Below, piece after piece: positions 31,507-33,012 of a DNA stretch of 37,157 bases (the stretch's first letter is position 1; every line of letters begins with the position of its first letter). Under the pieces are notes generated by a model. The model was not told the DNA's origin and searched no databases. It was given only the letters and a program-made list of their open reading frames with translations. Origin of the DNA: Clostridia bacterium. GTDB taxonomy: Bacteria; Bacillota; Clostridia; TANB77; CAG-508. The DNA is taken from assembly GCA_017410505.1 (NCBI GenBank), contig JAFQQR010000055.1, positions 1 to 37,157 on the forward strand, given 5' to 3'. A program made the position numbers and the translations under genes.

Positions 31507-31523
31507 AGTGTTAGCTTTTTACA

Positions 31524-31552
31524 TTGTAAAAAAATAAAAAATATGTTATAAA
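31524..31552 (+). promoter_or_regulatory. Promoter of the surface-ubiquitin gene
   Basis: TTGTAA (31524-31529), 17-bp spacer, TATAAA (31547-31552), about 38 bases before the ATG. It suggests that the ubiquitin gene is transcribed on its own. Confidence 0.55.
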
Positions 31553-31590
31553 TAAAAAAAGAATACTAATGAAGAAAGGAAAATTTTGAT

Positions 31591-32379
31591 ATGAAAAGAA
31601 AAATTTTAATTAGCAGTACAATTTTATTAATATCTATATTTCTATTTATACCCAATGTCTATGCTATGCAAATATTTGTAAAAACTTTAACAGGAGCGAA
31701 TATTACATTAGAAGTAGAACCAAATGATTCTATTGATGCTATAAAAGCAAAAATTCAAGAAAAAGAAGGAATACCGCCAGACCAACAAAGGCTTATTTTT
31801 GCAGGAAAACAATTAGAAGAAGGTAAAACTTTGTCAGATTACAACATTCAAAAAGAAAGTACACTTCATTTAGTTTTAAAGTTAAAAGAACATTTTTCAG
31901 TAACATATAATATGACGAACATTACAAGTAATGGAGAAGTTTCTACAACAAATGAAAGTGATTATACAGCAACATTAAGTGCAGGATATGGATATAAATT
32001 ACCAGAAACTATAATAGTAAAAGTAGGCGAAAATGAAATATCAACTGGATATACTTATAATAATGCTACTGGTACAGTTGTAATTAAAAATGAAGCGATT
32101 ACAGATGATATTGAAATTATTGCAGAAGCAATAAAATTTCCTGAACATACAGTTGAAACAAATCAAGTAGAAGATTCAACAATTATTACAAAAAATGAAA
32201 ATACAAACAACAATACTACTATTGATAATAAAAGCAATGTAGCAAATAATACAACAAGTATTACAACAAACAATCCGCAAACTGGTGATAATATCATATA
32301 TTTCTTTGGAGTGTTTGGAATATCCTTAATAGGTATTTTAATTACAACAAAATTTAGAAAAAATTACAAAAATAAATAA
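31591..32379 (+). CDS. Secreted, surface-anchored protein with an N-terminal eukaryotic-type ubiquitin domain
   Basis: 262 residues. Signal peptide 1-25 (MKRK, hydrophobic core, ends NVYA), so the mature protein would begin at Met26, which is ubiquitin Met1. Residues 26-101 align without gaps to human ubiquitin as I recall it, with 62 of 76 identical. Retained: Leu8, Ile44, His68, Val70 and Lys6, 27, 29, 33, 48, 63 (ubiquitin numbering). Lys11 is Ala, and the tail RLRGG is KLKEH, so E1 activation is not expected. Residues about 102-181 form a bacterial surface-type domain ([10 protein letters not shown] ... [10 protein letters not shown] ... DIEIIAEA). An Asn/Thr-rich linker (182-227) leads to NPQTG (228-232), a hydrophobic helix and KFRKNYKNK, a variant sortase signal. 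Codon use matches the host genome. Confidence 0.93.
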
Positions 32380-32385
32380 TTAAAT

Positions 32386-32418
32386 AAATAGACTAGCATT
32401 ACAAAAGCTAGTCTATTT
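32386..32418. terminator. Bidirectional terminator between the ubiquitin gene and tetR
   Basis: Perfect 12-bp stem AAATAGACTAGC/GCTAGTCTATTT (32386-32397 with 32407-32418). The T-run follows on the plus strand. The TAG stop of the convergent tetR gene lies within the right arm. Confidence 0.8.
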
Positions 32419-33012
32419 TAATAATCTTACAACAATTTCAATTACTTCATTTTTCATAATATCATAATTAATTTTATCATGCTTATGATAAACAATTTCA
32501 TGACACAAATTTTCAATTATTCCAATAATAATATGTATTTTTTCAACTGCATTTTCAAGTTCAATATTGTTATATTTTAAAATCTCAACTATTTTATTAG
32601 TCATTTCAAATTCAGATTCTTTAAAAATCTTAGCAACATCATCATCCAAATGAGACATAGCTACTAATTCTTCATGAGCTTTTTTAGATATAGTATGATT
32701 TTTAATGAAGATATCTATTATATTACCCAAAAGCTCTTCTATATTATCAATTTTTATTTTTTCTGTTTCAAGGATAGTAAACATAGGGAACATTATAGTA
32801 TTTGAATAGTTTTTCACACCTTCAATAAAAATATCTTTTTTATCATTAAAATATTGATAAATGATACCAGTTGAAACTCCAGCAACACTAGCAATATCAG
32901 GTGTAGATATATTATAATATCCTTTTTCACACATAAGCTCAAAACCTTTTTCAATTATTCTATTTCTCTTCTCTATAGACCTTTTTTGAGTAGGTATTCT
33001 AGTATCAGACAT
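32413..33012 (-). CDS. TetR-family transcriptional regulator
   Basis: 199 residues, ATG at 33012-33010 behind AGAGGTGATT. The N-terminal helix-turn-helix is typical: RNRIIEKGFELMCEKGYYNISTPDIA, SVAGVSTGIIYQYFNDKKDIF. The C-terminal ligand domain is not assignable. Divergent from the ABC/FtsX genes, with two 22-bp operator-like sites in the shared intergenic region. It most likely represses that efflux locus, and perhaps itself. Confidence 0.9.
   Translation of the reverse strand: MSDTRIPTQKRSIEKRNRIIEKGFELMCEKGYYNISTPDIASVAGVSTGIIYQYFNDKKDIFIEGVKNYSNTIMFPMFTILETEKIKIDNIEELLGNIIDIFIKNHTISKKAHEELVAMSHLDDDVAKIFKESEFEMTNKIVEILKYNNIELENAVEKIHIIIGIIENLCHEIVYHKHDKINYDIMKNEVIEIVVRLLK

What the first reader, a model, noticed from the sequence alone, without database searches (positions are those of the whole stretch)
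31591..32379. Near-exact eukaryotic ubiquitin built into a secreted, surface-anchored bacterial protein
Residues 26-101 match human ubiquitin without gaps at 62 of 76 positions, including long identical blocks such as [20 protein letters not shown] signal peptide ends exactly before ubiquitin Met1, and the chain continues into a bacterial surface-type domain, an Asn/Thr linker and an NPQTG anchor. Secreted ubiquitin is known in Bacteroides fragilis (BfUbb). A Gram-positive version presented on the cell wall would be a different design and suggests host mimicry, for example decoying ubiquitin-binding proteins, toxins, autoantibodies or chemokine-receptor signalling. The AT-rich host-like codons argue against contamination.
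Basis: partly seen in the sequence, partly recalled or inferred. Interest (0 to 1): 0.97.

Follow-up and report, generated by a model that had tools for sequence, protein, structure and literature searches.

The report
Gut bacterium wearing amoeba ubiquitin
A gut bacterium carries a ubiquitin gene nearly identical to that of the gut amoeba Entamoeba, fused to a predicted export signal and a predicted cell-wall anchor, so the protein would be displayed outside the cell, where it likely acts as bait for ubiquitin-binding proteins of other organisms; dozens of other bacteria carry the same kind of fusion.

Summary
ORF 31591-32379 (262 aa) is a predicted signal peptide, a ubiquitin starting exactly at Met1 (62 of 76 identical to human), a second predicted beta-domain, an Asn/Thr linker and an NPQTG-helix-tail anchor, on an AT-rich bacterial contig. 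The interpretation changes in three ways. (1) The ubiquitin is Entamoeba-type, not human-type: it differs from E. histolytica ubiquitin (PDB 4gsw) at 6 of 76 positions, four in the tail, and carries all eight residues that separate Entamoeba from human. In a tree, 28 of 47 bacterial copies join Entamoeba ubiquitin (98/88); three others are closest to Trichomonas-type. (2) It is one of a scattered class: 46 of 47 copies have a signal-peptide-like -3/-1 site directly before Met1, 1 of 46 readable tails keeps Gly-Gly, and carriers use sortase, S-layer, autotransporter or type IX modules. Ruminococcus albus 7 has one on a plasmid. (3) In 7 of 11 pairs the ubiquitin has a clearly lower dN/dS than the adjoining part. 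Best reading: a surface-displayed, non-conjugable ubiquitin ligand, probably aimed at gut protists. BfUbb-like killing of bacteria and a structural role remain open; no partner has been tested.

The parts
31518..31547 (+). promoter-like site (TTTACA-18-TATGTT) in the 85-bp gap before the gene
   Evidence: Consensus scan, 9 of 12 matches; 15 such sites found in the region against 11.7 expected by chance, so weak.
31523..31590 (+). upstream stretch shared with locus L003
   Evidence: Part of the 398-base, 84% identical match of window 31523-31919 to L003.
31591..32379 (+). gene for exported, wall-anchored ubiquitin (262 aa)
   Evidence: ORF; Pfam; homologues P0122, P0123, P0125, P0126.
31591..31665 (+). 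predicted signal peptide, residues 1-25, cut predicted directly before ubiquitin Met1
   Evidence: Sequence: KRK, hydrophobic core, VYA then M; 46 of 47 bacterial ubiquitin rows have A or G at -1 and A, V or T at -3.
31666..31893 (+). ubiquitin domain, residues 26-101, Entamoeba type, tail LKLKEH in place of LRLRGG
31894..32145 (+). second domain, residues 102-185, predicted beta strands at 124-177
   Evidence: AlphaFold2 model, blocks of pLDDT 62-81 for residues 121-180; residues 100-262 62% identical to P0122; no Pfam hit.
32146..32271 (+). Asn/Thr-rich linker, residues 186-227, probably disordered
   Evidence: Sequence; pLDDT under 50 for residues 185-235.
32272..32286 (+). NPQTG sorting motif, residues 228-232
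   Evidence: Sequence; pattern hits; 10 sortases in the genome; a sortase gene lies next to the ubiquitin gene in relatives L003, L004 and L030.
32287..32376 (+). predicted membrane helix and basic tail, residues 233-262
   Evidence: Predicted helix 232-261; weak Gram_pos_anchor match 14.1 bits.
32390..32419 (.). inverted repeat AGACTAGC / GCTAGTCT then ATTTT, terminator-like, overlapping the end of the opposing TetR gene
   Evidence: Read from the sequence; not reported by the scan, whose loop limit is 8 bases.

Best explanation
This gene encodes an Entamoeba-type ubiquitin fused to a predicted export signal and a predicted sortase anchor, and it likely works as a surface-displayed ubiquitin that cannot be conjugated and would bind ubiquitin-recognising proteins of gut protists that meet or graze on the bacterium. 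Shown: the ubiquitin sequence and its Entamoeba type; loss of Gly75-Gly76, so by established ubiquitin chemistry it should not be charged by E1 or joined to substrates; the same layout in relatives; lower dN/dS in the ubiquitin than in the adjoining part in 7 of 11 pairs. Predicted: export, cleavage before Met1, anchoring by a sortase. Inferred: the gene came from a gut amoeba; the constraint reflects an outside partner that recognises ubiquitin; the partner is a protist rather than the mammal. One possible outcome would be interference with the predator's ubiquitin-dependent sorting of engulfed bacteria; this is untested.
For: Entamoeba type: 4gsw matches at 96% over 73 columns and is the best single-copy PDB match (142.1 bits; the standard human chain 129.6); 69 of 72 positions against 61 for human; at all eight Entamoeba-human differences the window has the Entamoeba residue, while 0 of 644 other eukaryotic units (203 different) carry more than 4 of the 8. 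Tree: Entamoeba ubiquitin sits inside a set with 28 bacterial rows, support 98/88. Three further rows (L015, L035, L050) are closest to Trichomonas-type ubiquitin (for L015). Display: 46 of 47 rows have the -3/-1 site at Met1; sortase-type motifs in 13 of 47 by a loose pattern; SLH, autotransporter and type IX domains in L048, L018 and L032; a sortase gene 62, 122 and 6 bases from the ubiquitin gene in L003, L004 and L030 and a type IX PorP/SprF gene next to it in L032. No Gly-Gly in 45 of 46 readable tails. Selection, ubiquitin against adjoining part: window-L003 dN/dS 0.030/0.699 against 0.512/0.848; L005-L006 0.024/0.306 against 0.127/0.203; L024-L025 0.012/0.185 against 0.074/0.179 (ratios recounted). 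The nine recalled Ile44-face residues are all intact in the window's copy and in 16 of 47 bacterial rows. 16 of the 24 loci in the Entamoeba set name a ruminant gut in their titles.
Against: The Ile44 face is not more conserved than other exposed positions (permutation p 0.44 for all 47 rows, 0.25 for the Entamoeba clade); Leu8-Ile44-Val70 are all intact in only 28 of 47 rows: no sign that the class as a whole keeps the usual ubiquitin-receptor face. In the three L014/L019/L023 pairs dN/dS is not clearly lower in the ubiquitin (0.15, 0.21, 0.20 against 0.16, 0.29, 0.12), and L017-L020 are too alike to tell. A stable fold alone might explain part of the low dN. Donor identity may reflect opportunity for transfer, not the partner. 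Some carriers are not gut bacteria. No partner, expression or surface data exist here; the anchor match is below the Pfam cut-off.
Confidence: 0.4

Rival explanations
1. It is an antibacterial factor that works like BfUbb: the displayed or shed ubiquitin binds a target in competing bacteria and stops their growth.
For: BfUbb is the only bacterial secreted ubiquitin with a tested function known to me; it has a signal peptide ending at Met1, lacks the terminal Gly, is patchy among strains and seems to need no immunity gene (PMC5705921). The present genes share the first three features, and the neighbours that recur next to them are sortase or TetR genes, not candidates for immunity.
Against: BfUbb is soluble and 63% identical to human (48 of 76; abstract and passage of PMC3352274); this copy has an anchor and is 70 of 76 identical to Entamoeba ubiquitin. 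Purifying selection is not what one expects of an arms-race toxin (inference).
Confidence: 0.25
2. The ubiquitin fold is merely a stable, protease-resistant tip or spacer domain of a surface protein, with no partner that recognises ubiquitin as such.
For: Many bacterial surface proteins recruit sturdy small domains (general knowledge); the Ile44 face shows no excess conservation; in the L014/L019/L023 pairs the ubiquitin is not more constrained than its neighbour.
Against: In 46 of 47 rows it is the predicted mature N terminus, cut at Met1, and in window-L003 its dN/dS is 0.04 against 0.60 for the adjoining part; a spacer need not keep 69 of 72 Entamoeba residues.
Confidence: 0.22
3. It imitates mammalian extracellular ubiquitin to dampen host immunity or engage CXCR4.
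For: Extracellular ubiquitin has reported anti-inflammatory activity in mammals and a proposed, disputed CXCR4 route (passages of PMC10892293). Phe4 and Val70, recalled as CXCR4 contacts, are intact in the window's copy.
Against: The sequence is amoeba-type; carriers include Methylotenera and Pontibacter, which I recall as free-living; the CXCR4 claim is itself contested.
Confidence: 0.08
4. It is an assembly chimera or amoeba DNA joined to a bacterial contig.
For: The genome is a draft of 57 contigs, and 0 of 34 other same-genus genomes has the gene.
Against: Same architecture in several genomes; the protein on 4 contigs; one continuous reading frame from signal peptide to anchor; a named strain with a complete plasmid carries another member.
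Confidence: 0.01

Closest known systems
BfUbb (ubb) of Bacteroides fragilis
   Same: Eukaryotic-type ubiquitin with a bacterial signal peptide ending exactly before Met1, no C-terminal Gly, no conjugation enzymes seen in the genome by its authors, patchy distribution (PMC3352274, PMC5705921).
   Different: BfUbb is a free 76-aa protein, 48 of 76 identical to human; here the ubiquitin is 62 of 76 identical to human and 70 of 76 to Entamoeba, and is fused to a second domain and a sortase-type anchor.
Entamoeba histolytica ubiquitin (PDB 4gsw, 4gu2)
   Same: 70 of 76 residues, including all eight that differ from human.
   Different: Ends in LRLRGG, as a conjugated ubiquitin does; here K11A, T12N, R72K, R74K and Gly-Gly replaced by Glu-His, with export and anchor parts added.
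RUMAL_RS21475 (WP_013483628.1) on plasmid pRUMAL01 of Ruminococcus albus 7
   Same: Signal-peptide-like start, then ubiquitin, then a further part, in a Gram-positive named strain.
   Different: Ubiquitin of a human-like rather than Entamoeba type (65 of 72 to human, 57 to Entamoeba); no sorting motif by the loose pattern.
Secreted ubiquitin effector of the cyst nematode Globodera, as described in PMC5705921
   Same: Signal peptide plus ubiquitin plus C-terminal extension.
   Different: From an animal and soluble, acts in plant cells; its extension is reported to be cleaved off (passage).

Membership tests
Ubiquitin family (PF00240) | Sequence and beta-grasp fold of ubiquitin | tested here: met
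   100.9 bits, cut-off 25.4; model matches ubiquitin structures, TM to target 0.94-0.97 for the top three.
Ubiquitin family (PF00240) | C-terminal Gly-Gly for E1 charging and conjugation | tested here: not met
   LKLKEH in place of LRLRGG. A ubiquitin-fold protein, not a working protein modifier.
Ubiquitin family (PF00240) | E1/E2 machinery in the same cell | tested here: inconclusive
   No E2 match, but none of the control genomes rang either, so absence is not shown; one ThiF-type match with stops in the stretch read, a family that rang in 12 of 14 control genomes.
BfUbb-type secreted bacterial ubiquitin | Signal peptide ending exactly before Met1 | tested here: met
   VYA then M, by eye; 46 of 47 rows.
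BfUbb-type secreted bacterial ubiquitin | No terminal Gly | tested here: met
BfUbb-type secreted bacterial ubiquitin | Free, soluble single-domain protein | tested here: not met
   161 further residues with a predicted second domain and anchor.
BfUbb-type secreted bacterial ubiquitin | Inhibits other bacterial strains | not testable with these tools
   Needs a bench assay.
Sortase-anchored surface protein | Sorting motif, membrane helix, basic tail at the C terminus | tested here: met
   NPQTG at 228-232, predicted helix 232-261, tail KFRKNYKNK; against it, Pfam PF00746 only 14.1 of 20 bits.
Sortase-anchored surface protein | Sortase in the genome | tested here: met
   10 PF04203 matches over the cut-off; which one serves NPQTG is unknown; sortase genes adjoin the ubiquitin gene in L003, L004, L030, not in the window.
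Sortase-anchored surface protein | Covalent attachment to the wall | not testable with these tools
   Needs wall fractionation.

The most novel reading that the evidence does not exclude
Bacteria of animal guts have repeatedly taken ubiquitin from the protists that eat them, Entamoeba and trichomonads, removed its conjugation tail and hung it on the outside of the cell by whatever anchor they own (sortase, S-layer, autotransporter, type IX), as molecular camouflage or bait against grazing: a widespread class of predator mimicry.
Probability: 0.3. Interest if true: 0.95.

Novelty: new variant of a known kind. Interest (0 to 1): 0.86.

Why it matters
Ubiquitin is the textbook eukaryote-only protein; one bacterial secreted copy (BfUbb) is well known. 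Here are 47 different bacterial ubiquitins, 46 of them with export-type starts, 28 of an amoeba type, on display devices of several kinds and, in 7 of 11 pairs, held more tightly by selection than the part next to them. If the partner is a protist it would reveal a molecular layer of bacterium-protist conflict in the gut; if mammalian, a source of ubiquitin-like antigen; if bacterial, a new family of contact weapons. A named strain that carries one (R. albus 7) makes the question testable.

Tried and rejected
Human mimicry as the prime reading: set back once Entamoeba ubiquitin proved the closest. My own earlier conclusion, that the eight-residue signature is bacterial and absent from eukaryotes, was wrong: Entamoeba was missing from the eukaryotic set; corrected. 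E32, one of the eight, is favoured by the scan word KAKIQEKE and should not be counted as independent there.

Specific conservation of the Ile44 face: not found. The face and core residue lists were recalled, not derived from a structure.

Proof of several separate acquisitions: suggested by the tree (12 label changes, at least 4 forced by starred branches), but AU tests do not reject one clade of all 47 bacterial rows (p 0.059), nor the 29-row Entamoeba-side clade plus the Trichomonas-type rows (p 0.23), nor plus R. albus (p 0.46); 72 columns are few. These tests were run on the tree without Entamoeba.

A neighbour common to the class: one search showed only the window's neighbours, none of which is closely matched in the other loci. 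Looking again at all 492 ORFs of the window and 43 loci showed that near relatives do share surroundings (L005/L006, L013/L016, L014/L023, L017/L020) and that a sortase adjoins the ubiquitin gene in L003, L004 and L030 and a TetR gene adjoins it in L014, L020, L022, L023 and the window; most other neighbours are unrelated. The window's TetR was not matched to the other TetR genes at 35% identity.

Mobile element: no phage match. Empty site: the upstream MFS gene has homologues in 6 of 146 genus genomes, own included; the stretches around the other five have different neighbours, so no empty site could be shown. A loose text flag for ubiquitin in two ORFs of L077 is chance: that genome (G170) had no PF00240 match. 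Protein searches with the ubiquitin part were swamped by eukaryotic polyubiquitin and listed 120 of almost 8,000 hits each. Weak PF00240 matches below the cut-off (G043; G501, G540) were not used.

Literature: ten searches (the last only for a PDB code) in open-licence papers found BfUbb; no account of anchored or Entamoeba-type bacterial ubiquitin stood out in the listings. Subscription papers are not covered. The Jiang et al. paper on BfUbb was seen only as a reference. PMC4378268, PMC10892293, PMC10579323, PMC12853789 and PMC8860606 were seen as passages.

Full report
OBSERVATION. The window is contig 51 of a 1.53-Mb, 57-contig genome (completeness 91.5, contamination 2.9). The ORF at 31591-32379 encodes 262 aa. 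Residues 26-101 match human ubiquitin without gaps at 62 of 76 positions; PF00240 scores 100.9 bits. Before it lie 25 residues with the look of a signal peptide ending VYA; after it a stretch with predicted beta strands, an Asn/Thr-rich linker with low model confidence, NPQTG, a predicted helix and a basic tail. The AlphaFold2 model is modest overall (mean pLDDT 60.7, nine sequences) but better in the ubiquitin part (blocks of 75-88 for residues 31-90). The gene's G+C (0.259) fits the window (0.278). It has a promoter-like site before it and an inverted repeat after the stop. Neighbours: ABC and MFS transporter genes upstream, a TetR gene downstream on the other strand and, by their sequence, an ABC transporter pair beyond it.

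WHOSE UBIQUITIN. The structure search placed E. histolytica ubiquitin (4gsw) at 96% identity over 73 columns; most other listed ubiquitins lie at 79-85%. I recalled the Entamoeba sequence, and its score against 4gsw (154.4 bits, E 2.2e-45) equals its local self-score, so it is taken as the deposited sequence. Entamoeba and human ubiquitin differ at eight positions (20, 22, 24, 25, 26, 32, 52, 54); the window has the Entamoeba residue at all eight and departs from Entamoeba at 11, 12, 72, 74, 75 and 76. Of 644 full-length eukaryotic units (203 different) from two protein searches, none carries more than four of the eight; those searches did not contain Entamoeba.

A CLASS, NOT A SINGLETON. One scan of 84,980 species genomes, which looks only for six peptide words of this protein and so is far from complete, gave 36 loci. 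Family searches not tied to those words gave, over the cut-off, 1 of 55 relatives, namely the window's own genome (0 of 34 other same-genus genomes), 5 of 287 genomes of the order and 5 of 391 of the class, own included each time. A plasmid search gave three records: Ruminococcus albus 7 and two weaker ones in Pseudoalteromonas; phages gave none. After removing duplicates, two short rows (L038, L041) and three viral units (L039), 47 bacterial ubiquitins remained. In 46 the residue before Met1 is A or G and the one at -3 is A, V or T; the exception, L037, has no room for a signal peptide. Of 46 readable tails only L048 keeps Arg-Gly-Gly. The C-terminal parts vary: sortase-type motifs in 13 of 47 by a loose pattern; of ten proteins scanned with Pfam, an S-layer domain in L048, an autotransporter domain in L018 (and a match below the cut-off in L027), a type IX signal domain in L032.

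NEIGHBOURS. The window's own neighbours are not closely matched in the other loci. But a sortase gene lies 62 bases after the ubiquitin gene in L003, 122 bases before it in L004 and 6 bases after it in L030, the loci whose proteins are built most like the window's, and in L032 a type IX PorP/SprF gene follows it: the export or anchoring device sits beside the displayed ubiquitin. A TetR-type regulator adjoins the gene in L014, L020, L022, L023 and in the window. Near relatives share wider surroundings (L005/L006, L013/L016, L014/L023, L017/L020); most other adjoining genes scanned are unrelated housekeeping or unknown genes.

ORIGIN. In a tree of 96 rows and 72 columns, Entamoeba ubiquitin sits with zero branch length inside a set with 28 bacterial rows from Bacillota and Bacteroidota (98/88); L031 (Fibrobacter) is next. 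L015, L035 and L050 group with P0231 (99/93), whose repeat unit scores best among single copies against 5xy3 chain m, a Trichomonas vaginalis ribosome entry (passage of PMC8860606). The others lie among various eukaryotic types. L007 carries two neighbouring secreted ubiquitin genes, one in the Entamoeba set and one not. The plain reading is gene flow from gut protists to gut bacteria more than once, but AU tests do not reject one clade. 16 of the 24 loci in the Entamoeba set name ruminant gut sources in their titles; the other 8 carry codes that do not name a source.

SELECTION. Eleven pairs were compared (ratios). In seven, dN/dS is 2.5 to 14 times lower in the ubiquitin than in the adjoining C-terminal part, at similar dS: window-L003 0.030/0.699 and 0.512/0.848; L005-L006 0.024/0.306 and 0.127/0.203; L024-L025 0.012/0.185 and 0.074/0.179; L013-L016 0.091/1.136 and 0.209/1.044; likewise L003-L004, window-L004 and window-L030. 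In the three L014/L019/L023 pairs the ratio is not clearly lower (0.15, 0.21, 0.20 against 0.16, 0.29, 0.12); L017-L020 are too alike to tell. So in the window's own kin the ubiquitin is what selection holds most tightly. Between unlike architectures high synonymous divergence (median pS 0.88 over 231 pairs of 22 copies) may include separate transfers and is not used as evidence.

WHAT IT DOES. Without Gly-Gly it should not be conjugated (established chemistry). With predicted export and anchor it would be displayed with ubiquitin at the free end. The window's copy keeps all nine Ile44-face residues, so it could bind ordinary ubiquitin receptors; but across the class this face is not specially conserved, which speaks against a single shared receptor. 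I judge a ubiquitin-recognising partner outside the cell most likely, and a gut protist more likely than the mammal because of donor type and habitat; BfUbb-like action on bacteria and a structural role are real rivals. None of this has been tested at the bench.

AGAINST WHAT IS KNOWN. BfUbb shares the signal peptide at Met1 and the missing Gly but is soluble and more diverged (PMC3352274 and PMC5705921: abstracts as passages, further passages and both discussion sections read). The window's protein fails the soluble single-domain feature, so it is filed as a new variant, not a member.

Noticed in passing
L040 (R. albus 7 plasmid pRUMAL01), 3853-8273: The ubiquitin gene lies in a run of small hypothetical genes with a phosphatidylinositol phospholipase C-type gene upstream and a dockerin gene downstream.
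   Followed up: partly
L007, 6001-6860: Two secreted ubiquitin genes side by side, one Entamoeba-type and one of another type.
   Followed up: partly
L014 5232-5957, L023 1751-2476, L020 4895-5713, L022 5218-5898: A TetR-type regulator lies directly upstream of the ubiquitin gene (5 bases away in L014 and L023), as a TetR gene also adjoins the window's gene: a possible regulator of display.
   Followed up: partly
L014, 6439-7953: A BspA-type leucine-rich-repeat protein gene follows the ubiquitin gene 40 bases on.
   Followed up: no
L018, L027, L028: Exported ubiquitin in Pseudomonadota; L018 (Methylotenera) is fused to a clear autotransporter beta-barrel, L027 to a weak match.
   Followed up: partly
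L048, 1408-3216: The only copy with an intact Arg-Gly-Gly before the next domain, ending in S-layer domains; it might be cut by eukaryotic deubiquitinases.
   Followed up: no
L022, about 6168: Ubiquitin reading frame interrupted by a stop: a probable decayed copy.
   Followed up: no
L037, 6034-6357: A diverged ubiquitin without a signal peptide and with a Cys-rich tail; I recall the sample naming as a termite gut, which no call confirms.
   Followed up: no
L039, 2011-2745: A probable eukaryotic virus contig with three ubiquitin units joined by Gly/Thr/Ser-rich linkers, two of them strongly diverged.
   Followed up: no
G000:C27:92164-93077: An NPQTS motif shortly before a sortase gene, a hint of which sortase may serve the NPQT motif.
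   Followed up: no
L041: A Pseudoalteromonas plasmid encodes a very long Ig-like protein whose N terminus is a diverged ubiquitin after a signal-peptide-like start.
   Followed up: no
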